Source of the DNA: Nocardioides eburneiflavus
GTDB lineage: Bacteria; Actinomycetota; Actinomycetes; Propionibacteriales; Nocardioidaceae
DNA length: 64,000 nucleotides
Assembly (NCBI RefSeq): GCF_004785795.1
Contig: NZ_SRRO01000001.1
Coordinates: forward strand, 2,604,001 to 2,668,000
Direction: 5' to 3'
Within the stretch, counting starts at the first letter, position 1. Each line of letters starts with the position of its first letter. Of this stretch, positions 39,107-61,734 are shown piece by piece. The position numbers were made by a program, and so were the translations under genes. The notes under the pieces are model-generated. The model searched no databases. It saw only the letters and a list, made by a program, of their open reading frames with translations, and was not told where the DNA came from.

Positions 39107-39792
39107 CGCCCATGCTCTACACGGTCGCGCACGGCGTCATCCCTCCGCTCGTCCGTGCCGTGTGGCGTCCGACGGTCGAGGGCCTGCACCACGTGCCCGC
39201 GACGGGACCCGTCATCGTGGCGAGCAACCACCTGTCATTCTTCGACAGCGTGGTCATCCCGGTGGTCGTGCCGCGCAAGGTCGTCTTCCTCGCCAAGTCC
39301 GACTACTTCACCGGGTCGGGGGTGAGGGGCGCGGCGCAGCGGGCCTGGTTCGAGGGGCTCGGCATGCTCCCCGTCGACCGCGACGACACGAAGGCCGCGA
39401 TCGCGAGCCTCGACACCGCGCTCGAGGTGCTGCGGCGTGGGGAGGCGTTCGGCATCTACCCCGAGGGCACCCGCTCACGCGACGGCCGGCTCTACCGGGG
39501 CCGCACCGGCGTGGCCCACCTCGCGCTGACCGCGGGCTGCCCGGTCGTCCCGGTGGGGCTGCAGGGCACCGAGGACATCCAGCCCGTCGGCTCCAACCGC
39601 CCTCGGCTGCGCGGCGTCGACGTGACGGTGCGCGTCGGTGAGCCGATCACCGTCGCGGGCGAGTACGACGGCGTCGCCACCGGCCGCGCCCGCCGCGACC
39701 TCACCGACCGGATCATGACCGCGATCGCGGGACTGACCGGCCAGGAGCTGGCCGGCGCCTACAACGAGCGGCCGGCCTCCACCTCGGCCTGA
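39103..39792 (+). CDS. 1-acyl-sn-glycerol-3-phosphate acyltransferase (PlsC family)
   Basis: The product has 229 residues. The acyltransferase motifs are clear: NHLSFFD near residue 40 (HxxxxD catalytic pair), GMLPVDRDD near 86, and YPEGTRSRDGRL near 118 for the phosphate-binding EGTRS. Such enzymes add the second fatty acid in phospholipid synthesis. ATG 39103 overlaps the ATL stop; a shorter start at 39112 is possible. Its last 34 bases overlap the convergent DUF1116 gene. Confidence 0.9.
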   Translation: MTPMLYTVAHGVIPPLVRAVWRPTVEGLHHVPATGPVIVASNHLSFFDSVVIPVVVPRKVVFLAKSDYFTGSGVRGAAQRAWFEGLGMLPVDRDDTKAAIASLDTALEVLRRGEAFGIYPEGTRSRDGRLYRGRTGVAHLALTAGCPVVPVGLQGTEDIQPVGSNRPRLRGVDVTVRVGEPITVAGEYDGVATGRARRDLTDRIMTAIAGLTGQELAGAYNERPASTSA

Positions 39793-41183
39793 GCCGACCG
39801 GGCCGCGAGCGCGGCGAGCGCCTTCGGGAAGATCTCCGCGGGCGGGGTGACGAGCCCGGCGCCGACCTGGCCGACGCCGGCGACCGCGCCGGCCATGCCG
39901 GTGTTGATCTGCGGCAGGATCCCCGTACGGCACACCTTGGTCACGTCGATGCCGGTGGGCGTGCCCTGGAACTCCAGCACGGGCACCGTCCAGCGCGGGT
40001 TCTCCGCGAGGGTGATCTCGTGCATCCGGCGCGTGGTGGCCAGCGCGTCGGGCACCGAGCCGCCGACGAGGCGGACGATCGCCGGCGCGGTCGCCATCGC
40101 GAAGCCGCCGATGCCAGCCGTCTCGGTGATCGCGGAGTCGCCGATGTCGGGGTTGGCGTCGTCGGGACCGAAGTCGCCGAGGAAGAGGCCCTCGGCGACC
40201 TGCGCCGGGCCGGTGAACCACTCGTCGCCCGTGCCGGAGACCTGGATGCCGAAGTCGGTGCCGTTGCGCGCCATCGCCACGACCATCGTCGACCCCGGCA
40301 CGTCGCGACCTGCGTCGAGGGCGAGCTTGCACGCGGGCATGGCGAGGTTGAGGAAGAAGTGGTCGTTGCCGCCGACGAAGCGCAGCACGTCGGCGACGTC
40401 CGAGCTGTGGAAGCCGCCCTCCTCCGCACTGGTCACCATCGCGGGGGACAGGTCGCGCAACAGCATCAGCGTGCCGGCGCGGTTGCGGTTGTGGGCCTCG
40501 TCTCCCATCTGGAGCATCTGCGTGAGGATGCCGGTGACGTCGGTGGCCTCCGGGGTGCCGCGCACTGCCGCCTGGAGCAGGGGGCCGAGCACGTCGCCCA
40601 TCCAGCGCAGGCGGGTCAGCACCTCGTCGTTGTAGGCGCCGTAGCGCAGCACCTTGCCGAGGCCCTCGTTGAGGGAGCAGTACGTCCGGCGGCCGGTCGC
40701 GCGGTCCTCGAGGACCCACATCCACATCGACGGCGTGACTACGCCCGCCATCGGGCCGACGGCGCTGCGGTGGTGGCACGGCTCGAGGCTGACGCTGCTG
40801 CCGGACTCGAAGAGCGCGACCGCGTCCTCGGGGTCGTCGACGAGGCCCTCGAGGGCGGCCCCGCCCATCAGGGCGCCGCGTAGGGGGCCGGAGGCACGCT
40901 CCCACTCGATCGGCGGGCCGGCGTGGAGGAACTGCCCCTGCTCGAGCCCGAGGACCTCGCTCGCCGGGGCGACGTCGACGAGGTGGGCGGTGACGCCGAG
41001 CATCGCCTCGACGGCCGTGCGGTTGGCCTCGACGCGGCGCGGGTCGGTGGCGACCGTCGCGAGGTCTGCCTCGGTGCCCGGCATCGGGGGACGCCAGTCG
41101 ACGCGCTGGACGTCGACGGCCTGGCCGGCCACGGCGTCGGCGAACATGTCGGCGCCGCAGGTGACGACCGTGGGGGTGCTCAT
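39759..41183 (-). CDS. DUF1116 protein (YlbE/AllG-like, oxamate carbamoyltransferase component)
   Basis: The product has 474 residues of the DUF1116 family. Recognisable parts are VDWRPP near residue 29, RVEANRTAVEAM near 50, GPMAGVVTPSMWMWV near 150, and GGNDHFFLNLAMPA near 273. The E. coli relative YlbE (AllG) is one of the proteins that, with FdrA and YlbF, accounts for oxamate carbamoyltransferase, the last nitrogen-salvaging step of anaerobic allantoin breakdown. Here it is the last of a three-gene minus-strand operon DUF2877-fdrA-DUF1116; its ATG shares a base with the fdrA stop (TGATG). Family assignment is firm; the exact substrate in this organism is inferred. Confidence 0.85.
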   Translation of the reverse strand: MSTPTVVTCGADMFADAVAGQAVDVQRVDWRPPMPGTEADLATVATDPRRVEANRTAVEAMLGVTAHLVDVAPASEVLGLEQGQFLHAGPPIEWERASGPLRGALMGGAALEGLVDDPEDAVALFESGSSVSLEPCHHRSAVGPMAGVVTPSMWMWVLEDRATGRRTYCSLNEGLGKVLRYGAYNDEVLTRLRWMGDVLGPLLQAAVRGTPEATDVTGILTQMLQMGDEAHNRNRAGTLMLLRDLSPAMVTSAEEGGFHSSDVADVLRFVGGNDHFFLNLAMPACKLALDAGRDVPGSTMVVAMARNGTDFGIQVSGTGDEWFTGPAQVAEGLFLGDFGPDDANPDIGDSAITETAGIGGFAMATAPAIVRLVGGSVPDALATTRRMHEITLAENPRWTVPVLEFQGTPTGIDVTKVCRTGILPQINTGMAGAVAGVGQVGAGLVTPPAEIFPKALAALAARSAQAEVEAGRSL

Positions 41184-42730
41184 CAGGAGGCCTTCCCTTC
41201 GAAGTTGCTCAGCAGGTCGAGGGCGCGGCGGGTGGCGCTCGCGTTGGACAGGTGGACCTCGGCGCCGGCGGCGACGAGCGCGTCGCGCTGCGCGGAGAGG
41301 CCCTGGGGGTCGAGGTCGGTGCCGACGAGGCTGACGACGACCGGGATCGGCCGCTCCGCGCGAGCTGCCTCGATGGCGGGGGCGAGGAGGGAGGCCGGGT
41401 CGGGCTCGGCGCCGTGGCCGAGCACGAGGTCGAGGAGGATCACGCCGGTCGAGGGGTCGGCGGCGGCGCGGGAGATCTGCTCGTTGCGCAGGGTCGGGTC
41501 GATCATCGGGTGCGCGCGGCCCTGGGTCAGGGCGTCGTCGCCGAAGTCGACGAACGTGTGGGTGTCCGCGATCAGCTCGCCCGGGTCGAGGGCGAGGTCG
41601 TCGGAGAGCGGGATGTTGCTGCGCACGGGGCCGAGCGCCTCGGTCGCGAGCAGCATCGACTCGTCGCACAGGGTCCCGCCGACGAAGAGGCCGCGCAGGA
41701 GCGGTCCGGTCGCGGCGGCCGACTCGTCGGCGCCCTGCACGGGCCAGTCGGGGGCGTCGTGGCCGAGGCGCGCGAGCACGGCCTCGGCGACGGCGGTGAG
41801 GTCGCGCTGGCCGCGACCGAGCAGGCCGAGCTCGACCGGGGTCGCCAGCGCGTCGGTGTCACGGGCGAGGGCCTCGGCGACCTCGGGGGCGGGGGGCTTG
41901 GAGACCACGACGACCAGGTCGACGTCCGGGTCGGCGTCGAGGCGGCGCAGCGCCTCGCGCGTGGCGAGCCCGCCGACCGCGGCCGACAGGTCACGGCCAC
42001 CCACGCCGAGCGCGTGGCGTACGCCGACCCCGTCGGTGCCCTGCGCGGCGAGGTGCTCGCCCGCGTGGTGCAGCAGCGCGAGCAGCTGCTGGCAGCCGGT
42101 GCCGGAGGCGGCGACGAGCCCGATCCGGCCGGGGCGCACCGTGTTGGCGAAGCCCAGTCCGACGCCGTCGATGACCGCGGTACCGCAGTCGGGGCCCATC
42201 ACGAGGGCGCCGCGGGAGGAGGCGTACGTCTTGAGCGCGACCTCCTCGGCGAGCGGCACGTTGTCGCTGAAGACCATCACGTCGTGGCCGGACTCGAGCG
42301 CGTCCATCGCCTCGACGGTGGCGCTGGCGCCCGGCACCGAGACCAGGGCGACGGCGCCGCCGGGACCCGTACGCCGCAGTGCGCTGCCGGTGGTGCGGGG
42401 CGGGGCCTCGGTGGTGTCGCCGGTGGTGGGGCGGGTCGGGGTGAGGGCGGTGTCGACGGCCTGCAGTGCCTGCGCGACGTCGGCGTCGGCGTCGAGGCGC
42501 AGCGCCACGACCATGTCGTTGCCGGAGGCGGGTGGAACGGCAAAGCCCATCGCCTCGAGCACCTCGAGGTTGAGCCCGGTGGCCATCGCGACCTGCGCGG
42601 CGACGACGCCGGGCGTGGCCTGGACGGCACGGCTGACCTGGAGGAGGGTCACCGAGTCGGCGTACGCGCCGCTGCGGAGCTCGACGTGGTCCACGTGGTC
42701 CACGTGGTCCTTGGTGGTGGTGGTGCTCAT
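41183..42730 (-). CDS. fdrA: FdrA-like protein (acyl-CoA synthetase fold)
   Basis: The product has 515 residues with the fold of succinyl-CoA synthetase alpha chains. SVPGASATVEAMDAL near residue 110, YASSRGALVMGPDCGTAV near 165, and VAASGTGCQQLL near 204 are the FdrA landmarks. It contains a short His/Asp/Val repeat near the N-terminus (DHVDHVDHVE) encoded by a nine-base tandem repeat GTGGTCCAC, which looks recently grown. FdrA (AllF) works with AllG and AllH in oxamate carbamoyltransferase of E. coli. Overlaps on both sides with its operon partners. No carbamate kinase gene, which completes the E. coli set, is in the window. Confidence 0.88.
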   Translation of the reverse strand: MSTTTTKDHVDHVDHVELRSGAYADSVTLLQVSRAVQATPGVVAAQVAMATGLNLEVLEAMGFAVPPASGNDMVVALRLDADADVAQALQAVDTALTPTRPTTGDTTEAPPRTTGSALRRTGPGGAVALVSVPGASATVEAMDALESGHDVMVFSDNVPLAEEVALKTYASSRGALVMGPDCGTAVIDGVGLGFANTVRPGRIGLVAASGTGCQQLLALLHHAGEHLAAQGTDGVGVRHALGVGGRDLSAAVGGLATREALRRLDADPDVDLVVVVSKPPAPEVAEALARDTDALATPVELGLLGRGQRDLTAVAEAVLARLGHDAPDWPVQGADESAAATGPLLRGLFVGGTLCDESMLLATEALGPVRSNIPLSDDLALDPGELIADTHTFVDFGDDALTQGRAHPMIDPTLRNEQISRAAADPSTGVILLDLVLGHGAEPDPASLLAPAIEAARAERPIPVVVSLVGTDLDPQGLSAQRDALVAAGAEVHLSNASATRRALDLLSNFEGKAS

Positions 42731-43500
42731 GCTGCCCTCCCGGGGCGGTCGGCGGGGTGGTCGTGGGGGCTGTCCTGATCGGGCATCGAGGCCAGCGCGA
42801 GGCGCGCGCCGGTGAGGAGGCCGGCTCCCGAGGTGGCGCCGACGGCGAGGAGCGCGTCGGTCGCCCCGTTCGAGGGGGAGGTGAGCCAGTCCGCGAGCTG
42901 GGGCAGCACCTCGCCGCGCAGGGCGCAGTCGAGCAGGGTCGCGGACAGCAGCGTCGTGACGCCCAGCCGGCGGCGTACGGCCGAGGCCAGCACGGGGTCC
43001 GGCCGGCCCGCGGCGGCGCGGGTGGCCAGCCAGCCGGCCAGCACGTCGTCGCCGAGCGGGGTCAGGCCCGGCCCGCGGCCGAGCAGGGCGTCGAGGTGCG
43101 CGGGGACCAGTCGGCCGTCGGCGGGCAGGGCGAGCCCGGAGGTCGCCGGGTGCGGCGCGAGGGTCTGGCCGGCGCGTCGCGGAGCGGGCGCAGTGACGTC
43201 GACGACGCGTCCGATGCGGGTCTGGCGTCCGCCGAGGACGAGCGTGCCGCCCCGTACCTCGACGTGGGGGGCGCCGCGGTGCTGCCCGAGGCCGATGACC
43301 TCGGTGAGGTCCGGCAGCGCCGACCAGAGGGCGCACGGCACCCGGGTCGCCGTCGCGGAGACGAGGCCGAGGCACCAGCCGTCGAGGTCGACGTAGATCG
43401 CCGAGCTGCTGGCGTGGAGGACCTGCCGGGGACCGTCAGCGGCGGTGAGGAGCCGCCGGCGCGCCCGCTGTGGTGCCGCAACGGGAAGTGGTCCGGACAT
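42727..43500 (-). CDS. DUF2877 protein (YlbF/AllH-like)
   Basis: The product has 257 residues. The DUF2877 landmark GLTPLGDDVLAG lies near residue 147; before it come an Ala/Arg-rich start and IYVDLDGWCLGLV near 37. In E. coli the YlbF (AllH) protein of this family is the third part of the oxamate carbamoyltransferase set. First gene of the minus-strand operon; its ATG at 43500 is 69 bases from the divergent PucR-type gene, so both use one short control region containing the GAGAACTTGTC motif. Its stop overlaps the fdrA start. Confidence 0.8.
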   Translation of the reverse strand: MSGPLPVAAPQRARRRLLTAADGPRQVLHASSSAIYVDLDGWCLGLVSATATRVPCALWSALPDLTEVIGLGQHRGAPHVEVRGGTLVLGGRQTRIGRVVDVTAPAPRRAGQTLAPHPATSGLALPADGRLVPAHLDALLGRGPGLTPLGDDVLAGWLATRAAAGRPDPVLASAVRRRLGVTTLLSATLLDCALRGEVLPQLADWLTSPSNGATDALLAVGATSGAGLLTGARLALASMPDQDSPHDHPADRPGRAA

Positions 43501-43553: not shown

Positions 43554-43569
43554 GGAGCAAGGGGCTGAT

Positions 43570-44841: not shown

Positions 44842-44845
44842 TCCG

Positions 44846-44880
44846 CTTGACCTTGTCCCCGCGGGAGGGCCCACGGTCGT
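44846..44880 (+). promoter_or_regulatory. MerR-type promoter for the MerR-PP2C gene
   Basis: TTGACC at 44847-44852 begins a dyad with arms around CCCCGCGGG (CCTTGTCCCC and GGGAGGGCCC), then CACGGTCGTCGG. This is the layout of actinobacterial MerR-controlled promoters: a -35 TTGACC, a dyad filling a long spacer, and CACGGT at the -10 side. It sits 36-70 bases upstream of the MerR-PP2C start, so self-regulation is likely. Confidence 0.55.
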
Positions 44881-44915
44881 CGGACCGGTGACAGCCACCG
44901 GAGAGGATGGCGACG

Positions 44916-45932
44916 ATGACCAGCACCCGTGACCTGATGACCATCGGCGACTTCGCCCGCGCGGCGGGCCTGACGCCGAAGGCGTTGCGGCTCTACGACG
45001 AGCTCGGGCTGCTGCGTCCGGTCGAGGTCGACGAGCACTCGGGCTACCGCCGGTACGCCCCCGCCCAGCTCGAGCGTGCCCGCCTGGTGGCGACGCTCCG
45101 GCTGGTGGGCATGCCGCTGGCCCGGATCGAGCAGGTGCTGGACGGCTCCCGCGCCGACATGGCGCAGGCCGTCTCGGCGTACTGGGTCCAGGTCGAGGCA
45201 GACACCGCGACCCGCCGCGACATCGTCGCCACCCTCGTCCACCACCTGAGGAACGAGGAACCCGACATGACCCTCTCCACCCACACCCTGCACGCGACGT
45301 TCGGCACCAGCCACCTCCGGGGCGGCCGCGACCGCCAGCAGGACGCGTACGTCGCGACGCCCGAGCTGGTGGCGGTCGCCGACGGCTTCGGTGACCGCGA
45401 CGACCTCGCCGCCATGGCGCTGGCGGCGTTCGGGACCGGCGGCCTCGACGGCGCCGTGGCCGAGGTCGCGGCCGACATCACGGCGGGCCTGCCCGATGCG
45501 CCGACCTCGGGCACCACCCTCACCGCGGTCGTCCTCGAAGGAGGAACCGCGCGCATCACGCACGTCGGCGACGCGCGGGTGTGGCTGGTGCGCGACGGTG
45601 CGCTGCGGCAGCTCACCCACGACCACACGGTCGTCGCCGCGCTGATCGACGCTGGTCAGCTCACCGTCGACGAGGCGCGCTCGCACGAGCACCGCAACCT
45701 GCTCAACCGCGCCCTGGCCCCGGGCGTCGTGGCCGACGAGGCCGCGGTCGACCTCCGGCCGGGCGACCGGCTGGCGCTCACGACCGACGGCGTCCACTCG
45801 TACGTCGACGACCTCGCCCCGCTGCTCCTCGCCGACGGCGAGCCGCAGGACGTCGCGGACTCCGTGGCGGCGGCCGTCGTCGCCGCCGGCGAGCCGGACA
45901 ACCACACCGTCGTGGTGGTCGACCTGTCCTGA
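44916..45932 (+). CDS. MerR-type regulator fused to a PP2C-like phosphatase domain
   Basis: The product has 338 residues. Residues 1 to about 110 form a MerR regulator: MTIGDFARAAGLTPKALRLYDELGLL with wing residues SGYRRYAPAQL, followed by a dimer helix. From about 125 a PP2C (PPM) Ser/Thr phosphatase domain has its landmarks: GRDRQQDAYVA near 134, HVGDARVWLVRDG near 212, LTTDGVHSYVDDL near 285, and DNHTVVVVDLS at the end. Asp residues for the two metals are present. ATG 44916 lies nine bases after GGAGAGG; ATG 44907 is also possible. The phosphatase domain may sense or set phosphorylation of an anti-sigma or kinase system, with the MerR part turning it into transcription. This is rare wiring and unassigned. 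Confidence 0.85.
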   Translation: MTSTRDLMTIGDFARAAGLTPKALRLYDELGLLRPVEVDEHSGYRRYAPAQLERARLVATLRLVGMPLARIEQVLDGSRADMAQAVSAYWVQVEADTATRRDIVATLVHHLRNEEPDMTLSTHTLHATFGTSHLRGGRDRQQDAYVATPELVAVADGFGDRDDLAAMALAAFGTGGLDGAVAEVAADITAGLPDAPTSGTTLTAVVLEGGTARITHVGDARVWLVRDGALRQLTHDHTVVAALIDAGQLTVDEARSHEHRNLLNRALAPGVVADEAAVDLRPGDRLALTTDGVHSYVDDLAPLLLADGEPQDVADSVAAAVVAAGEPDNHTVVVVDLS

Positions 45933-45964
45933 GGCCGGCACGCAGCCGACACGGTCGGTTGCGC

Positions 45965-46010
45965 CTCCCGTCACCGTGCGTTGGCCTCGGGCGCGCACGG
46001 TGGGCGGGAG
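45965..46010. terminator. Large hairpin after MerR-PP2C gene
   Basis: A stem with CTCCCG (45965-45970) plus CACCGTGCG (45972-45980) pairs with CGCACGGTG (45994-46002) plus CGGGAG (46005-46010), with a small internal bulge. It lies 33 bases after the MerR-PP2C stop and 47 bases before the phosphodiesterase start, so it likely ends the first transcript. Confidence 0.55.
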
Positions 46011-46056
46011 CGCCCGGCCGACCGGCTGGGCCCGACACTCCTCGGGAGAACACCAG

Positions 46057-46923: not shown

Positions 46924-47406
46924 CAGCCGGCTCGGGTCCTGGTCACGGTCGCCCTTGCCAGTGAGATCGGGGCGCGCCTGGTCGAAGGTGTCTACGCGGT
47001 CCGCGCGGATGCCGGCCACCAGACGCCTGCTGACATCAACCAGCCCGGCGTGCGGATCGGGGTCAAGCGCGGCTCCGCGTACGACCTCCACCTCACCCGG
47101 ACCCTCCAGCACGCGACCGTGGTGCGAGGCGAGGAGGGCGTCGACGTCTTCCTCGACGACGGGCTGGACGCCGCGGCGGGAATCCGCCAACCGATGACCG
47201 CCTTCGTCCAGGGGCGAGCGGACATGCGCCTGATCGACCAGCGATTCATGCAGATCCAGCAGGCAGTGGGCACCGCGAAGGGGCGGCACCCGGACACCGT
47301 GGCGTTCCTGCGCGCAGCAGTCGAGGACCTCAAAGCCAGCGGATTCGTGTCCGAGGCACTCCGGATGTCGGGGCAGGCTGACGCGGTGGTCGCACCTCCC
47401 GGGTGA
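46924..47406 (+). pseudogene. Remnant of a substrate-binding protein gene (5'-truncated)
   Basis: The frame after the GDPD stop reads, without a start codon near its beginning, VYAVRADAGHQTPADINQPG, then GVKRGSAYDLHLTR, TLQHATVV, DVFLDDGLDAAAGIR and DQRFMQIQQAVGTAKGR. This is the C-terminal half of a type II (amino-acid-type) periplasmic substrate-binding protein. The N-terminal lobe and signal peptide are missing, and the in-frame GDPD stop sits right before it. A 118-residue product from the GTG at 47050 could be made but would be a partial fold. The gap from 47407 to 47435 separates it from HNH copy B. Confidence 0.65.
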
Positions 47407-47435
47407 CTCCCGCAGCCGCGCCGCGGACCTGGGCG

Positions 47436-49096: not shown

Positions 49097-49109
49097 GTCT
49101 GCGCACCGG

Positions 49110-49245
49110 GTCAGGGGTCTCGTGACGGTCGCTGCGCGACCTCCTCGACCAGCGAACGGTCGCCCGGGTCTCGATACACCGGGGCTCGTTCCTCGCCGGC
49201 TACTCGACCAGCGATGGCTGACAGGCTGGTCGACCACCGATGGGG
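49110..49245. repeat. REP-like palindromic repeats
   Basis: Several repeats of the same unit seen at 22641-22755 and 59486-59527 lie here, next to the 5' end of HNH copy B: GGTCTCGTGACGG...CTCGACCAGCGA, GGTCTCGATACACC...CTCGACCAGCGATGG, and GTCGACCACCGATGG (the last being the complement of CCATCGGTGGTCGAC). They are imperfect and overlap each other. Confidence 0.6.
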
Positions 49246-49252
49246 AGATCGG

Positions 49253-49699: not shown

Positions 49700-49752
49700 C
49701 CCCGAAGCGTACGAGTGCGCGAGGTGACAGGCGGGAACGTGCACGTCATGGT

Positions 49753-52692: not shown

Positions 52693-55109
52693 CCACCAAG
52701 CTCTTCGGCGCCAAGGTGCCGCGCGTGGAGGACCAGCGCTTCCTGCGCGGACAGGGCCGCTACGTCGACGACCTCCTCACCGACGACCCGCGGCTGCTGC
52801 ACGCGGCCGTCCTCCGCTCGCCCCACGCCCACGCCCGCATCGTCGACATCGACGTCTCCGACGTGCTCGATCTCGACGGCGTGGTCGCGGTGTGGACCTG
52901 GGAGGACCTCACCGGCCCGATGGCCGAGCCGCTGCCGCTGCTCATCCCGCACCCGACGCTCACCCACGGCCGCACCCAGTACGCGCTGGCGCGCGAGGAG
53001 GTCAACTACGTCGGCGAGGCGATCGCCTTCGTGGTCGCCGTCGACCGCTACGTCGCCGAGGACGCCGTCGCCCGCATCCGCGTCGACTACGAGCACCTCC
53101 AGCCGGTGGTCGGCATCGCCGCCGCCCGCGCGGCGGAGCGTACGGTCCACGACGACGTGCCCGACAACGTCGGCGCCCGGATGGAGCAGGAGAACGGCGA
53201 CGCCCGCGCCGCGATCGCCGCTGCTCCGCACACGCTCACCCTCGACCTCGACATCGAGCGCTCGGCCTGTACGCCCATGGAGGGCCGCGGCACCGTCGCC
53301 CGGTGGGACCCCGACACCTCGCGGCTGACCGTGTGGTCGTCCACCCAGACGTCGACCGGCGTGCGTGGCTGCGTGGCCGCCAAGCTCGGCCTCGACCTCG
53401 CCAAGGTCGACGTGATCACCCCCGACGTCGGCGGCGGGTTCGGCGTCAAGGTGGTGCACCCGTGGCCCGAGGAGCTGCTGGTCCCGCTGGCGGCGAAGAC
53501 GCTCGGCCGGCCGGTCAAGTACACCGAGGACCGGCGTGAGCACTTCATCTCGTCCGCGCACGAGCGCGCCCAGGAGCACCACGTCGAGGTCGGCTTCGAC
53601 GACGAGGGCCGGGTGCTCGGGCTCGACGTCGAGTTCTGGCACGACCACGGCGCCTACACGCCCTACGGGCTCATCGTCCCGATCATCACGTCCACGCAGC
53701 TGCTCGGGCCCTACAAGCCGCAGAACTACCGCGTCGTGTTCGAGTCGCTCTACACCAACACCGTCATCGTCACGCCCTACCGCGGTGCCGGCCGGCCGCA
53801 GGGCTGCTTCGTGATGGAGCGGACGATGGACGCGATCGCGGCCTACCTCGGCAAGGACCGCACCGAGGTGCGCTCCGCCAACTTCATCCAGCCCGACGAG
53901 TTCCCCTACGAGCACGGGCTGATCTTCCAGGACGGTCGCGAGCTGACCTACGACTCGGGCGACTACCCGGCGTCGCTGGCCAAGCTCAAGGAGCTCGTCG
54001 GCTGGGACGAGTTCGAGGACTTCCGAGCCGAGATGGCCGCCCAGGGCCGCCGGGTCGGCATCGGGCTGGCCTGCTACGTCGAGGGCACCGGCGTCGGTCC
54101 CTACGAGGGGGCCCACGTCCACATCGAGACCTCCGGCAAGGTCAAGGTCGCCACCGGCCTCACCACCCAGGGCCAGGGCCACCAGACCGCGTTCGCGCAG
54201 ATCGTCGCCGACACCCTCGGCGTCCGGTTCGAGGACGTCGAGGTCACCACCGGCGACACCCGCAAGATGCCGTACGCCGTCGGCACCTTCGCCTCCCGTG
54301 CCGCGGTGATGAGCGGCTCGGCGATCCACCTCGCGGCGCTGCGTGCCAAGGAGAAGGCGCTGCGCATCGCCGCGGAGGCGCTCGAGGCGTCCGAGGAGGA
54401 CCTCGAGATCGCCGACGGCGTGGTGAGCGTCAAGGGCACCGACGCGAGCATCGACCTCGGCACCGTCGCCGTGCTGTCCAACCCGCTGCGCTACGCCTTC
54501 GACGAGGCGTCCAAGGCCGCCACCCAGTTCTCCGTCGGCGACCCCGGCAAGCCGCCGGTCGCCGAGGGCGACGAGCCGGGGCTCGAGGGCAAGGACTTCT
54601 ACTCCCCGCCGCGCTCGACCTTCGCCAACGGCATGCACGCCGTGATCGTCGAGACCGACCCAGACACCGCCGAGATCACGATCCTCAAGTACGCCGTGGT
54701 GCACGACTGCGGCCACCTGATCAACCCGATGATCGTCGAGGGCCAGATCCACGGCGGCGTCGCGCAGGGCGTGGGCGGCGCGCTCTACGAGCGGATGGCC
54801 TACGACGAGTCCGGGCAGCTGCTCAACGCCTCGTTCATGGACTTCCTCATGCCCTACGTCACCGAGGTCCCGACGTCGATCGACATCGACCACCTCGAGA
54901 CGCCGTCCCCGCTCAACCCGCTCGGCATCAAGGGCGCGGGCGAGGCCGGCGTCATCCCGTCGGCCGCGGTCTTCGCCGCCGCCATCGAGGATGCGGAGGG
55001 CTTCCCCATCACGGCGATGCCCATCTCGCCGTCCGAGCTCTTCGAGCTGCGCCTCGCGCACGCCGACGAACCCGACCCCACCGAAGCCCCCACCAGGAGC
55101 ACCCCATGA
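52689..55109 (+). CDS. Molybdenum hydroxylase, molybdopterin-binding subunit
   Basis: The product has 806 residues, the usual length for the large subunit. VGGGFGVKV near residue 250 and TPYRGAGRPQG near 362 bind the cofactor and substrate, GQGHQTAFAQ near 493 binds molybdopterin, and KGAGEAGVIPSA near 745 carries the catalytic Glu. The active-site loop is not the AYRCSFR of true (form I) CO dehydrogenase, so CO oxidation is unlikely and an N-heterocycle or related carbon is the likelier substrate. GTG 52689 overlaps the small-subunit stop; the stop overlaps the CoxG ATG. The Mo-specific insertion factors (XdhC-like) are not in the window. Confidence 0.92.
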   Translation: MTTKLFGAKVPRVEDQRFLRGQGRYVDDLLTDDPRLLHAAVLRSPHAHARIVDIDVSDVLDLDGVVAVWTWEDLTGPMAEPLPLLIPHPTLTHGRTQYALAREEVNYVGEAIAFVVAVDRYVAEDAVARIRVDYEHLQPVVGIAAARAAERTVHDDVPDNVGARMEQENGDARAAIAAAPHTLTLDLDIERSACTPMEGRGTVARWDPDTSRLTVWSSTQTSTGVRGCVAAKLGLDLAKVDVITPDVGGGFGVKVVHPWPEELLVPLAAKTLGRPVKYTEDRREHFISSAHERAQEHHVEVGFDDEGRVLGLDVEFWHDHGAYTPYGLIVPIITSTQLLGPYKPQNYRVVFESLYTNTVIVTPYRGAGRPQGCFVMERTMDAIAAYLGKDRTEVRSANFIQPDEFPYEHGLIFQDGRELTYDSGDYPASLAKLKELVGWDEFEDFRAEMAAQGRRVGIGLACYVEGTGVGPYEGAHVHIETSGKVKVATGLTTQGQGHQTAFAQIVADTLGVRFEDVEVTTGDTRKMPYAVGTFASRAAVMSGSAIHLAALRAKEKALRIAAEALEASEEDLEIADGVVSVKGTDASIDLGTVAVLSNPLRYAFDEASKAATQFSVGDPGKPPVAEGDEPGLEGKDFYSPPRSTFANGMHAVIVETDPDTAEITILKYAVVHDCGHLINPMIVEGQIHGGVAQGVGGALYERMAYDESGQLLNASFMDFLMPYVTEVPTSIDIDHLETPSPLNPLGIKGAGEAGVIPSAAVFAAAIEDAEGFPITAMPISPSELFELRLAHADEPDPTEAPTRSTP

Positions 55110-55750
55110 AGTTCACCGGAGAGAACACGCTCGCCGCGCCCGTCGCGCAGGCGTGGGACGCGCTGCTCGACCCGGCCGTCCTCGTCCGCACGATCCCCGG
55201 CTGCGAGCGCCTCGAGGCGACCGGCGAGAACGCGTACGCCATGACGGTCACCGCGGGCGTCGCGTCGATCAAGGGGACGTACGCCGGCTCCTGCGTGCTC
55301 ACCGACCTCGTCGAGCACGAGTCGCTCGTGATGAAGCTCGACGGCGCGGGCGCGCCGGGCACCATCGGGGCCACGGTCAACGTGCGGTTCGCTCCCGAGG
55401 GCTCCTCGACACGCATCTCCTACGACGCCGACGCCGTCGTCGGCGGGATGATCGGCGGGGTCGGCCAGCGCATGCTGACGAGCGTGTCGCGGCGGATGGC
55501 CGGGGAGTTCTTCGGCAACGTCGACGGCGTGCTGGCCGGCGGGGGAGCGGCTCCCGTCGAGGCAGCCGCCGCTGCAGGTGCGCCGGCTGCGGCGCCCGGA
55601 GGCGCGGTCAGCGCCGGCCAGGTCTTCACGGCGCCGGCTCCGGCGCCGGCGGCCGCCTCGCGGCAGGACTTCCTCACCGGCGTCGCCGTCGGCGCCGGCC
55701 TCGTGGTGCTCGGCGTGGTCGTCGGCGGGATCTTCGGTCGGCGGCGCTGA
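55106..55750 (+). CDS. CoxG-like membrane-anchor protein (SRPBCC fold)
   Basis: The product has 214 residues. The SRPBCC/CoxG fold fills about 1-145 (KFTGENTLAAPVAQAW at the start, LLDPAVLVRTIPGCERLE, EGSSTRISYDADAVVGG). An Ala/Pro-rich linker follows, and a C-terminal membrane helix near 190-210 (AVGAGLVVLGVVVGGIFG) ends in RRR. CoxG proteins recruit molybdenum hydroxylases to the membrane, which suits the gene order. Overlap with the large subunit (ATGA) and a four-base gap to the amidase support one transcript. Confidence 0.85.
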   Translation: MKFTGENTLAAPVAQAWDALLDPAVLVRTIPGCERLEATGENAYAMTVTAGVASIKGTYAGSCVLTDLVEHESLVMKLDGAGAPGTIGATVNVRFAPEGSSTRISYDADAVVGGMIGGVGQRMLTSVSRRMAGEFFGNVDGVLAGGGAAPVEAAAAAGAPAAAPGGAVSAGQVFTAPAPAPAAASRQDFLTGVAVGAGLVVLGVVVGGIFGRRR

Positions 55751-57149: not shown

Positions 57150-57640
57150 CACCTGTGCACACAGCTGTGGACAGACCTGTGCAGGAACCCGCCAGGCTGG
57201 GGATGGAAGGCGCTCCCCTGTGCACGACACGCCGACGGCGCCACACCCGGGCAAACCAGTGCCGAAGGTCCCTTGCGGACGGAGTGGCGCAGGGCGTAGA
57301 ACTGGTCTCACGCAGCCCCGCAAGGGGAGGCGGGATGGCTCCGACAATGGAGGGTCCGCACGACGCGAACCGGTACGCCGGGGGTCGTCGCAGGCACCGG
57401 GTGATGAGGTGGCTGGGGCTCCGAAGGACGGAGCGATCGACCGGGAGCATCACCGCGAACGGTCACCCCGAGGATCCGGACGCCACGGCGACCGACCTCA
57501 ACCAGAAGGGCCCTTGGCGCTCATACCGCCGAGGGCCCTTCGCTCGTTCCAGGGCCAGGCAGATCTTGCCGAGGGATCGCCGATTCGTCGGCAAGCCCTG
57601 CCGTGGCCGCCGCGGTGGCCTCCTCGGTTGAATCCTCCCC
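57150..57640 (+). other. Gene-poor gap with stem-loops and a possible 98-residue ORF
   Basis: No recognisable gene lies in this 491-base gap. A series of stem-loops is present: CCCC-GCAA-GGGG (57316-57327), CTCC...GGAG (57339-57352), GCTCCG...CGGAGC (57418-57434) and the large hairpin at 57506-57540. A basic 98-residue ORF starts at ATG 57335 with GGGGAGG four bases upstream and runs to 57631, but it crosses the last hairpin and looks like no family I know. Either a structured leader for hyuA or a small gene is possible. Confidence 0.4.
57506..57540 (+). terminator. Strong hairpin between amidase and hyuA
   Basis: AAGGGCCCTTGGCG (57506-57519) pairs with CGCCGAGGGCCCTT (57527-57540), 14 base pairs with one G-T pair, loop CTCATAC. 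It separates the amidase operon from hyuA, which starts at 57641. Confidence 0.55.
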
Positions 57641-59731
57641 ATGAGCAATCGGCGGATCAGGATCGGGATCGACACCGGCGGCACGTTCACCGACGTCGTG
57701 GCCTTCGACGAGGACTCGGGCGAGCTGGTCACCACCAAGACCCCCAGCACGCCGGGCAACCCCGCCGACGGCTTCATCGCCGGCATCGAGAAGATCCTCG
57801 GCGTCGTCGGCGCCGAGGGCAGTGACATCACCGCCGTCTCGCACGGCACGACGGTGGCGACCAACAAGCTCCTCGAGGGCAAGGTCGAGGCACTCGGCTT
57901 CATCACGACCGAGGGCTACGAGTTCATGCTCGAGATCGCCCGCCAGTCCGTTCCCGACGGCTACGGCAACTCCTACTTCTGGGTGAAGCCCGACCGCATC
58001 GTCCCGGCCGACCGCGTCCGTACGGTCGGGGGCCGCCTCGACTTCACCGGCGCCGAGATCCGGCCCTTCGACGAGGAGCAGGCCGTCGCGGCGGCCCGCT
58101 GGTTCCGCGACCAGGGCATCTCCACCATCGGTGTCTGCCTGCTGCACGCCTACGCCAACGACGAGCACGAGCTCCGCCTGCGCGAGGTCCTGCGCCGCGA
58201 GCACCCCGACGCCGTCGTCTCGATCTCCAGCGAGGTGCTGCGCGAGTACCGCGAGTACGAGCGCTCGATGACCACGCTGGTCGACGCGGCGGTCAAGCCC
58301 AACGTCAGCCGCTACGTCACCAACATCTCCGAGCGGCTGCTGAACTTCACCGGCAGCGCCATCCCGTTCTACGTGATGAAGTCCAACGGTGGCGTGCTGT
58401 CGGCCGACGAGGTCGTCCACCAGCCGATCACGACCGTGCTGTCCGGCCCGGCCGCGGGCGCCCTCGGGGCCGCCCTGATCGCGAAGGTCGCCGGCTTCCC
58501 GAAGATCCTCACCTGCGACGGCGGCGGCACCTCCACCGACGTCTCGGTGGTCCTCGACGGCGAGCCCACTCTCACCACCGAGGGCACTGTCGGGGCCTAC
58601 CCCAGCAAGATCCCCATGATCGACGTCGTCACCGTCGGCGCGGGTGGCGGCTCGATCGCCTGGCTCTCGCCCGAGGGCACCCTCAAGGTCGGCCCCCACT
58701 CGGCCGGCGCCGACCCGGGCCCGCTCTGCTACGGCAAGGGCGGCACCGCCCCGACGATCACCGACGCCCACGTCACCCTCGGCCGGATCCCTCCCCACCT
58801 GCTCGGCGGGGAGATCCCGCTCGACGTCGAGGCGGCCCGCGCCGGCATCACCGAGCTCGCCGGCCAGCTCGGTGTCGACTTCGAGCGCTGCGCCACCGGG
58901 ATCCTCGAGATCTCCGCGTGGAACCAGGCCAACGCCCTGCGCCAGGTCAGCGTCAAGCGCGGCCTCGACGTGCGCGACTTCATGCTCACCACCTTCGGCG
59001 GCTCCGGCTCGCTGCTGGCCTGCCGGCTCGTCGACATCCTCGACCTCGCGGGCGTCGTCGTGCCCCCCAACCCGGGCAACGTGAGCGCCTTCGGCCTGCT
59101 GACCGTCGACGTGAAGAACGACTACGTCCAGACCCACGTGGCCAAGGAGTCCGCGCTCGACCACGCGGCCGTCCAGGCCGTCCTCGACACCCTCACCGAC
59201 CGGGCCCGCGAGGCGCTCGACAAGGAGGGCTTCACCGAGGACCAGCACCAGTTCCACCGCACCATCGACGTGCGCTACGTCGGCCAGGCCTACGAGGTGC
59301 GCGTCGCCGCACCCGAGGGCGAGGTGGACCAGGCGTACGTCGCCGAGGTCGCCGACACCTTCCACGCCGAGCACCGCCAGCTCTACGGCTACGACTTCCG
59401 TGGGGACCCGACCCAGCAGGTCGAGTGGGTCAACCTGCGCGTCACCGGCATCGGGCCCATCACGCGCCCGGAGATCCCCAAGCTCCCATCGGTGGTCGAG
59501 GTGCGAGCGTCAGCGAGCCTCGAGACCACGACCCGGCCCGTGTGCTTCGACCCGGAGGTCGGCTACGTCGACACCCCGATCATCTGGCGCGGCGACCTCG
59601 GCGCGGGCGACACCTTCAGCGGCCCGGCCATCGTGGAGGAGTTCGGGTCCACCATCCCCGTCCACCCCGGCTTCGAGGTCGTGGTCGACGACTGGGCCAA
59701 CCTCGTGATCCGGAAGGAGTCGGGCCGATGA
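57641..59731 (+). CDS. hyuA: Hydantoinase/oxoprolinase subunit A
   Basis: The product has 696 residues. The sugar-kinase-like ATP site is marked by GIDTGGTFTDVV near residue 8 and LTCDGGGTSTDVSVV near 288; SHGTTVATNKLLEGK near 67 is also conserved. Such enzymes open a cyclic amide (hydantoin, 5-oxoproline, caprolactam-like rings) using ATP with HyuB. A REP-like unit is inserted in frame near residue 617 and adds SVVEVRASASLETT, just before the conserved RPVCFD segment, so the frame is kept. Start ATG 57641 lies 100 bases beyond a terminator hairpin, so it may have its own promoter. The stop overlaps hyuB (ATG 59728). Confidence 0.9.
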   Translation: MSNRRIRIGIDTGGTFTDVVAFDEDSGELVTTKTPSTPGNPADGFIAGIEKILGVVGAEGSDITAVSHGTTVATNKLLEGKVEALGFITTEGYEFMLEIARQSVPDGYGNSYFWVKPDRIVPADRVRTVGGRLDFTGAEIRPFDEEQAVAAARWFRDQGISTIGVCLLHAYANDEHELRLREVLRREHPDAVVSISSEVLREYREYERSMTTLVDAAVKPNVSRYVTNISERLLNFTGSAIPFYVMKSNGGVLSADEVVHQPITTVLSGPAAGALGAALIAKVAGFPKILTCDGGGTSTDVSVVLDGEPTLTTEGTVGAYPSKIPMIDVVTVGAGGGSIAWLSPEGTLKVGPHSAGADPGPLCYGKGGTAPTITDAHVTLGRIPPHLLGGEIPLDVEAARAGITELAGQLGVDFERCATGILEISAWNQANALRQVSVKRGLDVRDFMLTTFGGSGSLLACRLVDILDLAGVVVPPNPGNVSAFGLLTVDVKNDYVQTHVAKESALDHAAVQAVLDTLTDRAREALDKEGFTEDQHQFHRTIDVRYVGQAYEVRVAAPEGEVDQAYVAEVADTFHAEHRQLYGYDFRGDPTQQVEWVNLRVTGIGPITRPEIPKLPSVVEVRASASLETTTRPVCFDPEVGYVDTPIIWRGDLGAGDTFSGPAIVEEFGSTIPVHPGFEVVVDDWANLVIRKESGR
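59486..59527 (+). repeat. REP-like element inside hyuA
   Basis: CCATCGGTGGTCGAGG at 59487-59502, then TGCGAGCGTCAGCGAGCC and CTCGAGACC, is the same unit as the intergenic REP-like repeats at 22641 and 49110 but lies within the hyuA coding sequence. Its length keeps the reading frame, adding about 14 residues with no stop. The local reading SVVEVRASASLE is unlike the conserved HyuA chain around it. Confidence 0.7.
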
Positions 59732-61734
59732 GCACGAGCACCGACGTCAGCACCCGCCCCGTGGACCCGGCCTACGTCACGGCGAAGCCGGTCAACCCCG
59801 CCGGCCTGCCCACGGCGTACGAGCACGGCGGGCGCCTCACGCCCGAGGGCTCGAGCGTCGACCCGATCCTCGTCGAGATCGTCCAGGGCACCCTCGCCAG
59901 CGTCGAGATGGAGGTCGAGACCGCCATCGGGCGTACGAGCCGATCGCCGATGATCCGCGACGCGCACGACTTCCGCGCCGGCATCCACGACCGCCAGCTG
60001 CGCAAGCTCACCGGCCGCTCCTACAGCGCGCTGGTGCACCCGATCGTGCGCGACTTCCCGCTGGAGGAGATGCGCGAGGGCGACGTGTTCTTCCACAACG
60101 ACGTCTACGAGTCCGAGGGCGGCATCGGCCATCTCCCGGACCTCTGCGTCACCGTGCCGGTCTTCCACGAGGGCGAGGTCGTCGCGTTCGTGCAGGCCTT
60201 CGGCCACCACGACGACATCGGCGGCGCCTGCCCCGGGTCGATGCCGAGCGGCGCGACCAGCGTCTACGAGGAGGGCCTCGCCGTCCCGCCGATCAAGCTG
60301 TGGGACGCGGGCGTGCCCAACAAGGCCGCGCTGCGGATCATGACCCGCAACTCGCGGATGCCCGACAGCCTCGCCGCCGACCTCGACGCCGAGTGCTCGG
60401 CGTGCCTGATGGGCGCACGCCGGCTCAGTGAGCTGTTCGAGCGCTACGGCCGCGAGGCGATCGAGACGTCGTTCGACGCGATCCTCGACGCGACCACCGA
60501 GACCTACCGTCGCGAGATCCTCTCCAAGATCCCCGACGGCACCTACGTCTGGGAGGACTACGCCGAGCACGACGGCGTCGACGAGCCGCAGCTGCACACC
60601 CAGCGGATCACCCTGACCAAGGTCAGCGACGCCCCGGCCGACCCCGAGAACGGTCGTCCCGCCGGACCGCGGCTGATCATCGACTTCACCGGCACCAGCG
60701 CCCAGGCCAAGGGGCCGATCAACCACTGCGGCGACTACGTCGGCGGCAACTTCCTCAAGAAGTGGCTCGCGCCGATCCTGCGCAACCTCGCCGACACCCC
60801 CGAGCGGATGGCCGAGCTCGACGTCAACGAGGGCATCGTGCCGCTGATCGAGATGCGCTTCCCCGAGAAGGGCACGCTGCTCACCCCGATCCACCCGGGC
60901 CCGACCAACGCCCGCACCTTCGTGATCCTGCGGCTGCTCGGTGTGCTCGCGGGGGTCGTGGCCAAGGCGGTCGACGGCAAGATGCCGGCCGACCAGGAGA
61001 CGATCCGCTACACCGGCGTCTACGGCAAGGACCTCGAGGGCAACGACTACCTCATGCGCGAGGTGCTCGGCGGCGGCTCCGGCGGCCGCTACTACGCCGA
61101 CGGCGAGGACACCATCCACGTGGTGCCCGACTCCCGCAACCTGCCGACCGAGTTCACCGAGTCGCGCTTCCCGTTCATCGTCGAGCGCCTCGGCCTGGCC
61201 GTCGACTCCGGCGGCGCGGGCCAGTTCCGCGGCGGGCTGGGCTACGAGAAGCAGATCCGGATGCTCAAGGACGCCCACTTCATGTCCATCGCCGACCGCT
61301 CGATCCTGGCCTGCTGGGGCGTGCGCGGCGGCAAGGCGGGTGCCCCCTTCCAGGTCGTCATCGACCCGGGTGGCCCCGAGGAGCGCGAGGTCGACGCCCT
61401 CGCCGACGCCGAGGTGGTCCGGGCCGGCCAGGTCGTGCGGATCCGTACGACCGGTGGGGGCGGCTGGGGCGACCCGCTGGCCCGCGACCCGGAGCTCGTC
61501 GTCCGTGACGTGGTCTGGGGCAAGGTGTCGGCCGAGGGCGCGCTGCGCGACTACGGCGTCGTGCTGACCGGTTCACGTGACGGCGGTGACCTCGGCTTCG
61601 ACGCTGCAGCCACCGACGCCGAGCGCGCGGGGCGGGCTGCGTGGAGCCGGGAGGACGACGCGTTCTTCGACCGCGGTCCGGGATACGCCGAGCTGGCGGA
61701 GGGCGCTGCCTTCGCCGAGGTCGACCGGATCTGA
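59728..61734 (+). CDS. hyuB: Hydantoinase/oxoprolinase subunit B
   Basis: The product has 668 residues. Typical HyuB features are DPILVEIVQGTLASVEMEVE near residue 45, TSRSPMIRDAHDF near 70, FHNDVYESEGGIGHLPDL near 122, and a Gly-rich TTGGGGWGDPLARDP near 570 that is the C-terminal mark. Together with HyuA it hydrolyses a cyclic imide or lactam in the cytoplasm. The ATG overlaps the hyuA stop. It ends the catabolic block; no further pathway gene follows on this strand. Confidence 0.9.
   Translation: MSTSTDVSTRPVDPAYVTAKPVNPAGLPTAYEHGGRLTPEGSSVDPILVEIVQGTLASVEMEVETAIGRTSRSPMIRDAHDFRAGIHDRQLRKLTGRSYSALVHPIVRDFPLEEMREGDVFFHNDVYESEGGIGHLPDLCVTVPVFHEGEVVAFVQAFGHHDDIGGACPGSMPSGATSVYEEGLAVPPIKLWDAGVPNKAALRIMTRNSRMPDSLAADLDAECSACLMGARRLSELFERYGREAIETSFDAILDATTETYRREILSKIPDGTYVWEDYAEHDGVDEPQLHTQRITLTKVSDAPADPENGRPAGPRLIIDFTGTSAQAKGPINHCGDYVGGNFLKKWLAPILRNLADTPERMAELDVNEGIVPLIEMRFPEKGTLLTPIHPGPTNARTFVILRLLGVLAGVVAKAVDGKMPADQETIRYTGVYGKDLEGNDYLMREVLGGGSGGRYYADGEDTIHVVPDSRNLPTEFTESRFPFIVERLGLAVDSGGAGQFRGGLGYEKQIRMLKDAHFMSIADRSILACWGVRGGKAGAPFQVVIDPGGPEEREVDALADAEVVRAGQVVRIRTTGGGGWGDPLARDPELVVRDVVWGKVSAEGALRDYGVVLTGSRDGGDLGFDAAATDAERAGRAAWSREDDAFFDRGPGYAELAEGAAFAEVDRI

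What the first reader, a model, noticed from the sequence alone, without database searches (positions are those of the whole stretch)
39759..61734. Candidate undescribed N-heterocycle (purine/pyrimidine/ureide) catabolic regulon in two pieces
One locus has DUF1116, FdrA and DUF2877 (counterparts of E. coli AllG, AllF and AllH, the oxamate carbamoyltransferase set) with a divergent PucR regulator. Five kilobases on is a fully coupled operon of a UraA-type permease, molybdenum hydroxylase, CoxG and amidase, then hydantoinase A and B. Together they encode import of a base, ring hydroxylation, ring opening, amide hydrolysis and carbamoyl salvage. No uricase, allantoinase, dihydropyrimidinase or barbiturase was seen, so it matches no pathway I can name as a whole. 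The intervening 5 kb holds unrelated or repeat sequence, which suggests an originally single locus that was interrupted.
Basis: partly seen in the sequence, partly recalled or inferred. Interest (0 to 1): 0.8.

Follow-up and report, generated by a model that had tools for sequence, protein, structure and literature searches.

The report
Oxidative uracil-degradation gene cluster
The two gene groups are one conserved cluster that probably breaks down the RNA base uracil by oxidation, through a version of a pathway first described in the 1950s that appears to recover energy instead of releasing urea; two of its most telling genes lie just past the edge of the sequence window.

Summary
In 196 genomes of the genus (very probably Nocardioides), AllG, Mo-hydroxylase and HyuA orthologues occur almost perfectly together, within about 25 kb where they share a contig. 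In a far relative (G503) sixteen genes run on one strand. The 5 kb between the halves is a derived spacer, long mainly in the window's close relatives. 'Matches no pathway' is a window-edge artefact: a carbamate kinase and a barbiturase lie 0.5 and 1.5 kb past the right edge, and barbiturase tracks the other genes across the genus. Some far relatives add cytosine deaminase, cytosine permease, or a CoA-transferase with a carboxyltransferase-type protein that fits malonate use. Best reading: oxidative pyrimidine catabolism (uracil, barbiturate, ureidomalonate, malonate), with the described urea-forming step replaced by an AllFGH-type transcarbamoylase plus carbamate kinase (malonamate and carbamoyl phosphate, then ATP). 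The Mo hydroxylase, mostly named 'CO dehydrogenase' in public records, is a candidate uracil dehydrogenase. HyuAB is conserved but without an assigned step. No activity is shown. The pathway is known; this gene set and energy-conserving variant were not found in the papers searched.

The parts
39759..41183 (-). allG-like (DUF1116), proposed transcarbamoylase subunit
   Evidence: Pfam PF06545 311.7 bits; PDB 3clq 382 bits
41183..42730 (-). allF/fdrA-like, proposed transcarbamoylase subunit
   Evidence: Ligase_CoA; PRK06091 FdrA 359.9 bits, below its cut-off of 433; PDB 3dmy 'Protein fdrA'
42727..43500 (-). allH-like (DUF2877), proposed transcarbamoylase subunit
   Evidence: Pfam PF11392 64.7 bits
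43570..44841 (+). PucR-type regulator, divergent from allHFG
   Evidence: HTH_30 and GGDEF_2; start read from the sequence
44842..49892 (.). spacer separating pucR from the permease: MerR-PP2C, GDPD, small ORF, repeat protein gene, small acetyltransferase-like ORF (last label not tested)
   Evidence: median 185 bp in 56 other loci, 3 of them over 600 bp; repeat copy about 90% identical at 22766-24472
49893..51320 (+). NCS2 nucleobase permease with uracil-type TTYAENIG motif
   Evidence: Xan_ur_permease 226.6 bits; best PDB match uracil permease; motif; start read
51317..52195 (+). Mo-hydroxylase FAD subunit
   Evidence: FAD_binding_5 and CO_deh_flav_C
52192..52692 (+). Mo-hydroxylase 2Fe-2S subunit
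   Evidence: NCBIfam NF041020 206.9 bits, below its cut-off of 290
52689..55109 (+). Mo-hydroxylase large subunit, proposed uracil dehydrogenase
   Evidence: MoCoBD_1/2; NF040766 1527 bits; motif PYRGAGR
55106..55750 (+). CoxG-like protein
   Evidence: COXG 75.4 bits
55755..57149 (+). amidase-signature hydrolase, proposed malonamate amidohydrolase
   Evidence: PRK07486 470.4 bits over cut-off 465; malonamidase E2 among the weaker PDB matches
57272..57545 (+). structured RNA-like element with terminator hairpin between amidase and hyuA; link to the pathway unknown
57641..59731 (+). hyuA, hydantoinase/oxoprolinase A
   Evidence: Hydantoinase_A 297.1 bits
59728..61734 (+). hyuB, hydantoinase/oxoprolinase B
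   Evidence: Hydantoinase_B 443.9 bits
61740..62420 (+). NAD(P)H-binding (NmrA-like) protein, often linked. The next two members lie past the window's right edge: carbamate kinase (extrapolated 64498-65430 +, L192:4499-5431) and barbiturase (65456-66559 +, L192:5457-6560)
   Evidence: NAD_binding_10 36.6 bits; called after hyuB in many of the genus regions; carbamate kinase PRK12352 304.6 bits over cut-off 266; barbiturase PF09663 472.6 bits, PDB 5hwe 676.8 bits

Best explanation
The cluster is an oxidative pyrimidine catabolic system. The permease imports uracil (cytosine can feed in through a deaminase in some relatives). The three-subunit Mo hydroxylase, helped by CoxG, hydroxylates uracil to barbiturate. 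Barbiturase, just past the window edge, opens the ring to ureidomalonate. AllFGH then does not use oxalurate as in E. coli but phosphorolyses ureidomalonate to malonamate plus carbamoyl phosphate; carbamate kinase turns the latter into ATP, CO2 and ammonia. The amidase (replaced by a nitrilase-type or asparaginase-type hydrolase in some lineages) turns malonamate into malonate, which where linked is activated by a CoA-transferase and decarboxylated by a carboxyltransferase-type protein. PucR regulates. HyuAB is a conserved member whose step is open; my guess is ATP-dependent opening of a second ring such as 5-methylbarbiturate from thymine. Shown here: gene identities, linkage, co-occurrence, a single-strand 16-gene version. 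Inferred: every substrate and reaction.
For: Co-occurrence in 196 genus genomes: allG 117, moL 115, hyuA 116, barbiturase 115, union 118, all four in 110; each of the 8 discordant genomes is an assembly of 170 or more contigs. Barbiturase scores 676.8 bits to PDB 5hwe 'Barbiturase' against at most 309.4 to cyanuric acid hydrolases. Carbamate kinase lies directly 5' of barbiturase in 15 of 15 genus cluster regions read. Of 21 phylum genomes with barbiturase of 66% identity or more besides the window's own, allG is in 21, moL (67% or more) in 20, hyuA (60% or more) in 20, the last within 15 kb of moL in 14. G503 carries 16 genes on one strand over 21.6 kb with gaps of at most 40 bp: barbiturase, amidohydrolase related to cytosine deaminase, permease, carbamate kinase, an ORF in the allH place, allF, allG, Mo-hydroxylase (3), coxG, amidase, hyuA, hyuB, CoA-transferase III, carboxyltransferase. 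Embleya has cytosine deaminase (580 bits, cut-off 483) between hyuB and carbamate kinase; G421 a cytosine permease (387 bits, cut-off 326); G313 dihydropyrimidinase-like ORFs (315 bits, below the cut-off of 393). The 30 cluster AllGs in a 46-row tree lie on one side of a branch with support 99/96, apart from E. coli AllG. In E. coli AllFGH with carbamate kinase is shown to handle oxalurate, a close analogue of ureidomalonate (PMC11326118, abstract and Discussion read).
Against: No activity is demonstrated. The AllFGH substrate is inferred by analogy. HyuAB has no step in this scheme although it is as conserved as the rest. The amidase could be the urea-forming ureidomalonase. NCBIfam puts the barbiturase over the cut-off of its cyanuric-acid-hydrolase model (467 bits against 360). 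The permease is below the RutG and UraA model cut-offs. A 31-kb stretch of Nonomuraea around a 73% barbiturase has no carbamate kinase, AllG or Mo hydroxylase called in it (the rest of that genome was not searched), and G499 has AllG but neither this moL nor this hyuA. The linked CoA-transferase is not near the cluster in the window's own genome (best copy at C1:2058783, 68%), and 16 of its 60 best rows in the genus are not within 10 kb of barbiturase. The window's genome has urease, so it could use urea. E. coli AllG is a long, oddly composed row in the tree, and the root is arbitrary.
Confidence: 0.72

Rival explanations
1. Described oxidative pyrimidine pathway: the amidase is ureidomalonase and gives malonate plus urea, while AllFGH and carbamate kinase serve another substrate made by HyuAB.
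For: The amidase is of the amidase-signature family; PMC3758960 (passages read) gives barbiturase and ureidomalonase as the described route; the window's genome has urease. In G376 (81% complete) a 44% barbiturase relative sits beside a Mo hydroxylase and an amidase, and no AllG was found in the genome.
Against: AllFGH stays with barbiturase in lineages whose linked amide hydrolase is of another family: nitrilase type in G095, G163 and G280, asparaginase type in G474. Urease (E below 1e-20) is in 32 of 118 cluster genomes against 37 of 78 others (not corrected for kinship).
Confidence: 0.14
2. Oxalurate pathway as in E. coli: an imidazole-dione such as hydantoin is oxidised to parabanate, opened by HyuAB to oxalurate, and AllFGH makes oxamate, with oxalate as end product.
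For: AllFGH has this activity in E. coli (PMC11326118); HyuAB is of the hydantoinase family; the linked CoA-transferase also matches CoA:oxalate CoA-transferase at 249 bits, cut-off 522.
Against: Near-constant linkage to barbiturase in the genus and, in some relatives, to cytosine deaminase, cytosine permease or dihydropyrimidinase-like genes; uracil-type permease motif.
Confidence: 0.06
3. Cyanuric acid catabolism, as the NCBIfam name of the ring-opening enzyme suggests.
For: NF052395 cyanuric acid amidohydrolase 467 bits over cut-off 360.
Against: Much closer to barbiturase; cyanuric acid needs no ring hydroxylation (general knowledge); the AtzE and allophanate hydrolase models listed for the amidase are below their cut-offs.
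Confidence: 0.03
4. A true aerobic CO dehydrogenase locus lying beside unrelated amide catabolism.
For: NF040766 'aerobic carbon-monoxide dehydrogenase large subunit' 1527 bits, public names, CoxG partner.
Against: The active-site loop reads PYRGAGR and the form I motif AYXCSFR (recalled) is absent; the best PDB match is quinoline 2-oxidoreductase, ahead of CO dehydrogenases; linkage to barbiturase.
Confidence: 0.03

Closest known systems
Oxidative pyrimidine pathway with barbiturase and ureidomalonase (described from the 1950s; Soong and co-workers 2001-2002, papers not seen, cited from PMC3758960 passages)
   Same: Barbiturase orthologue, ring oxidation before ring opening, malonate as likely end product
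   Different: AllFGH and carbamate kinase instead of, or besides, a urea-releasing ureidomalonase; HyuAB added; candidate genes for the whole route in one cluster
E. coli allFGH-allK oxamic transcarbamylase and carbamate kinase (PMC11326118, abstract and Discussion read)
   Same: Three-subunit transcarbamoylase of DUF1116, FdrA and DUF2877 plus carbamate kinase at the end of an N-heterocycle pathway
   Different: No allantoin gene was noticed in the regions read (not searched for by family); barbiturase in the same locus; AllG apart from E. coli AllG in the tree; substrate proposed as ureidomalonate
Aerobic CO dehydrogenase (CoxMSL) and the CODH_aero_grp5 model
   Same: Three-subunit Mo hydroxylase with CoxG; scores over the NF040766 cut-off
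   Different: PYRGAGR loop rather than form I AYXCSFR; sits with barbiturase
HyuAB family (5-oxoprolinase, N-methylhydantoinase, caprolactamase)
   Same: HyuA and HyuB domain architecture
   Different: Below the caprolactamase equivalog cut-offs; substrate unknown

Membership tests
Oxidative pyrimidine pathway | Barbiturase present and linked | tested here: met
   115 of 196 genomes, nearly the same set as the other genes; on hyuA's contig and within 24 kb in 106 of 113 genomes with both; best match PDB Barbiturase
Oxidative pyrimidine pathway | Uracil to barbiturate hydroxylation | not testable with these tools
   A linked Mo hydroxylase is the candidate; no assay
Oxidative pyrimidine pathway | Ureidomalonase giving malonate and urea | tested here: inconclusive
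   An amidase-signature gene is linked in Nocardioides and many far lineages but is replaced by other hydrolase families in some
Barbiturase (AtzD/TrzD family) | Family membership and closer to barbiturase than to cyanuric acid hydrolase | tested here: met
   PF09663 472.6 bits; 676.8 against 309.4 bits; metal loop reads SAAHQGPEGGG as in 5hwe, not the GGxEHQGPxGG that PMC5366886 gives for the family
AllFGH oxamic transcarbamylase | Adjacent allF, allG, allH homologues | tested here: met
AllFGH oxamic transcarbamylase | Carbamate kinase partner in the same locus | tested here: met
   15 of 15 genus cluster regions read, next to barbiturase
AllFGH oxamic transcarbamylase | Passes the curated FdrA model cut-off | tested here: not met
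   PRK06091 359.9 bits against 433
AllFGH oxamic transcarbamylase | Acts on oxalurate | not testable with these tools
   No assay; context argues for ureidomalonate
Form I aerobic CO dehydrogenase | Active-site motif AYXCSFR (recalled) | tested here: not met
   Motif absent; PYRGAGR at residue 363
RutG uracil permease | Equivalog cut-off | tested here: not met
   343.9 bits against 758.65
NCS2 permeases with uracil-type TM10 motif (residue role recalled) | Glu in TTYxENIG at the UraA position | tested here: met
   TTYAENIG aligned to UraA TTYGENIG
Caprolactamase CapAB | Equivalog cut-offs | tested here: not met
   510.6 and 199.7 bits against 1000

The most novel reading that the evidence does not exclude
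A widespread, energy-conserving oxidative pyrimidine pathway in Actinomycetota that uses a transcarbamoylase activity not yet described (ureidomalonate plus phosphate to malonamate plus carbamoyl phosphate), with its Mo-dependent uracil dehydrogenase hidden under the name 'aerobic CO dehydrogenase' and a HyuAB enzyme that extends it to thymine through ATP-dependent opening of 5-methylbarbiturate.
Probability: 0.5. Interest if true: 0.85.

Novelty: new variant of a known kind. Interest (0 to 1): 0.72.

Why it matters
It offers a full candidate gene set for a pathway described from the 1950s, including a gene for the uracil-oxidising step and an ATP-yielding replacement for the urea-releasing step. 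It predicts a new substrate for the AllFGH enzyme family. It suggests that proteins called 'aerobic CO dehydrogenase large subunit' in many actinomycetes are uracil hydroxylases, which would inflate surveys of CO oxidation. Each claim can be tested with a few purified enzymes or deletions.

Tried and rejected
Rejected: the first idea that HyuAB replaces barbiturase, because barbiturase turned out to be linked in the same genomes. Rejected: that HyuAB is missing in far lineages, which was a fetch-edge effect; two searches found it, in 14 of 20 genomes within 15 kb of moL (in G246 and G292 about 28-32 kb away, in four on another contig). Rejected: cyanuric acid and CO-oxidation readings (see rivals). 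Led nowhere: Rfam on the region (nothing near a gathering score); plasmid records of Nonomuraea and Embleya carry no gene annotation there; literature searches for the genes of uracil oxidation or for barbiturate with carbamate kinase or carbamoyl phosphate listed no paper that describes this set. Statements of absence rest in an open-access library only, mostly on listings; Soong 2001/2002 and Seffernick 2012 were not read (the latter not held). Papers seen: PMC11326118 abstract and Discussion; passages of PMC3758960, PMC3961730, PMC11898903, PMC12625717 and PMC5366886; the rest as listings. Limits: genes in relatives were called with my own GC-frame script, not a trained gene finder; co-occurrence tests ignore kinship; the tree rows were my selection of 46. 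Rows dropped before counts: AllG rows at 48% identity or less and one short fragment, MoL rows at 54% or less, three HyuA rows at 47%, four short PF09663 fragments. No structure prediction was run.
Full report
What is in the window. The minus-strand operon allH-allF-allG (42727-43500, 41183-42730, 39759-41183) and the divergent PucR-type regulator (43570-44841) are real by Pfam, and so is the plus-strand run of NCS2 permease (49893-51320), Mo-hydroxylase FAD, 2Fe-2S and large subunits (51317-55109), CoxG, amidase, hyuA and hyuB to 61734. Inside each half the genes overlap by 1-4 bases, except coxG-amidase (4 bp apart) and a 491-bp gap between amidase and hyuA. Between the halves lie a MerR-PP2C fusion, a GDPD, a small ORF, a repeat protein gene whose second copy (about 90% identical DNA) is at 22766-24472, and a small acetyltransferase-like ORF (the last label is not tested).

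One locus, since interrupted. I searched 196 genomes of the same genus. Of the 80 named loci kept for the AllG protein most are Nocardioides and several of their contig lengths equal those of G genomes, so the window is very probably from that genus. Orthologues: AllG in 117 (65% identity or more), MoL in 115, HyuA in 116, PF09663 ring-opening amidohydrolase in 115. The union is 118 genomes and 110 have all four; each of the 8 discordant genomes is an assembly of 170 or more contigs (contig counts). Where allG and moL share a contig (101 of 115 genomes) they are always divergent and within 16 kb; hyuA and the PF09663 gene share a contig in 106 of 113 genomes, always within 24 kb; allG and PF09663 share one in 91 of 114, in 89 within 35 kb. 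The spacer is derived: the pucR and permease matches are 634-6276 bp apart (median 1502) in 20 loci of the window's close clade and a median of 185 bp (130-2955, three over 600) in 56 others (some genomes occur twice by two fetch routes; loci without both matches are not counted, and a few loci have no pucR between allH and permease). In the window it is 5051 bp.

What the window's edge hid. In the same genome a carbamate kinase lies at window-frame 64498-65430 and a PF09663 protein at 65456-66559. The latter scores 676.8 bits against the PDB chain named Barbiturase (5hwe) and at most 309.4 bits against cyanuric acid hydrolases, and its metal loop reads SAAHQGPEGGG as in 5hwe rather than the GGxEHQGPxGG given for the family in PMC5366886. 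NCBIfam's cyanuric-acid-hydrolase model is nevertheless passed (467 against 360 bits), so an automatic name may mislead. Carbamate kinase stands directly before barbiturase in 15 of 15 genus cluster regions read.

The same module far away. Among 396 genomes of the phylum, 24 including the window's own have a barbiturase relative. Of the 21 others at 66% identity or more, AllG is present in 21, MoL (67% or more) in 20 and HyuA (60% or more) in 20; HyuA lies within 15 kb of MoL in 14, about 28-32 kb away in 2 and on another contig in 4. G499 has AllG but neither this MoL nor this HyuA. Two further genomes with only a 44% relative lack AllG. In G503 sixteen genes on one strand span 21.6 kb with gaps of at most 40 bp: barbiturase, an amidohydrolase related to cytosine deaminase, permease, carbamate kinase, an ORF in the allH place, allF, allG, the three Mo-hydroxylase genes, coxG, amidase, hyuA, hyuB, a family III CoA-transferase and a carboxyltransferase-type protein. 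G512 and G581 show the same order from the Mo-hydroxylase genes to the carboxyltransferase. Carbamate kinase was called in 14 of 19 barbiturase regions and in G270. Embleya carries a cytosine deaminase (580 bits, cut-off 483) between hyuB and carbamate kinase (its stretch ends at PucR, so AllFGH was not seen), G421 a cytosine permease (387 bits, cut-off 326), and G313 dihydropyrimidinase-like and carbamoyl-amidase-like ORFs below their cut-offs. Against this, a 31-kb Nonomuraea stretch around a 73% barbiturase has no carbamate kinase, AllG or Mo hydroxylase called in it. Some lineages have an NMT1/THI5-type binding protein with ABC-transporter-like neighbours (the latter not tested) where others have the permease. 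In the genus, 44 of the 60 best CoA-transferase rows lie within 10 kb of barbiturase; the window's genome is not among them.

Mechanism. These contexts agree with uracil to barbiturate to ureidomalonate to malonate. Two steps need comment. First, AllFGH: in E. coli these three genes encode oxamic transcarbamylase, which makes carbamoyl phosphate and oxamate from oxalurate, with carbamate kinase beside it (PMC11326118, abstract and Discussion; E. coli locus). Ureidomalonate is the one-carbon-longer analogue of oxalurate, so the parallel product would be malonamate. An amide hydrolase is then needed, and one is linked in most regions read but from different families: amidase-signature in Nocardioides and many far genomes, nitrilase-type in G095, G163, G280 and Embleya, asparaginase-type in G474. 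That non-homologous replacement beside a steady AllFGH core favours malonamate as the intermediate. In a tree of 46 chosen AllGs the 30 from these clusters lie on one side of a branch with support 99/96, apart from E. coli AllG and other AllG paralogues; the root is arbitrary and the E. coli row is long. Second, the Mo hydroxylase: it has the three-subunit form, is closest in PDB to quinoline 2-oxidoreductase, lacks the form I CO dehydrogenase loop (motif recalled), yet most of the named rows among the 120 listed of 7908 public relatives call it carbon-monoxide dehydrogenase, in line with model NF040766.

Results against the reading. HyuAB is as conserved as the rest but has no step in the scheme; the thymine/5-methylbarbiturate idea is a guess. 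The amidase could be a ureidomalonase. The window's genome has urease, though urease (E below 1e-20) is in only 32 of 118 cluster genomes against 37 of 78 others (Fisher p 0.006, kinship not corrected). Several curated cut-offs are missed (RutG, UraA, FdrA, arcC, caprolactamase). A second module in three genomes (L207-L209) pairs HyuAB, Mo-hydroxylase, amidase and permease with no AllG, kinase or barbiturase gene called in it, so HyuAB has at least one related role elsewhere.

Literature. The oxidative route by barbiturase and ureidomalonase to malonate and urea is described in PMC3758960 (passages read). PMC12625717 (passages read) reports allFGH with carbamate kinase in nitrifiers and reads it as oxalurate degradation. 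No paper listed showed barbiturase joined with AllFGH or carbamate kinase; the library is open-access only and most of these papers were seen as listings.

Verdict. I call it a new variant of a known pathway.

Noticed in passing
window 57272-57545 (+), second copy G000:C1:258880-259032: Conserved structured RNA-like element ending in a terminator hairpin, about 95 bp before hyuA. Fold z-score -3.26; 26 of 59 predicted pairs show a two-sided change that keeps the pair in 11 sequences; no Rfam match near gathering score. A model of its 156-position core, built from those sequences, matches 117 of 196 genus genomes, up to 4 copies each; at least 76 of 150 listed copies lie within 10 kb of hyuA, 74 of them on its strand. 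Of 20 copies read elsewhere, some lie before PlsC-type, LacI-type and 5-oxoprolinase-like genes (the last two labels recalled). Candidate unreported RNA family; possibly regulatory.
   Followed up: partly
window 47479-49023 (-) and 22849-24429 (+): Two copies of a repeat protein gene, about 90% identical DNA, the first without Pfam or NCBIfam match; resembles actinomycete HNH/13E12-type repeats (recalled).
   Followed up: partly
window 44907-45932 (+): One ORF joins a MerR DNA-binding domain to a PP2C phosphatase domain, a pairing that looks unusual to me.
   Followed up: no
L062-L078: AllG paralogues at 33-48% identity in other gene neighbourhoods of the same genus, some beside Mo-hydroxylase genes (L076-L078); probably other carbamoyl-transfer pathways.
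   Followed up: partly
L207, L208, L209: A second module: NCS2 permease, CoxG-like, hyuA, hyuB, IclR-type regulator, Mo-hydroxylase, amidase, with no barbiturase, AllG or carbamate kinase called in it.
   Followed up: partly
L205, L206, L255: AtzD-family enzymes next to another Mo hydroxylase, in L255 also beside an amidase, without AllG called nearby: perhaps a urea-forming version.
   Followed up: no
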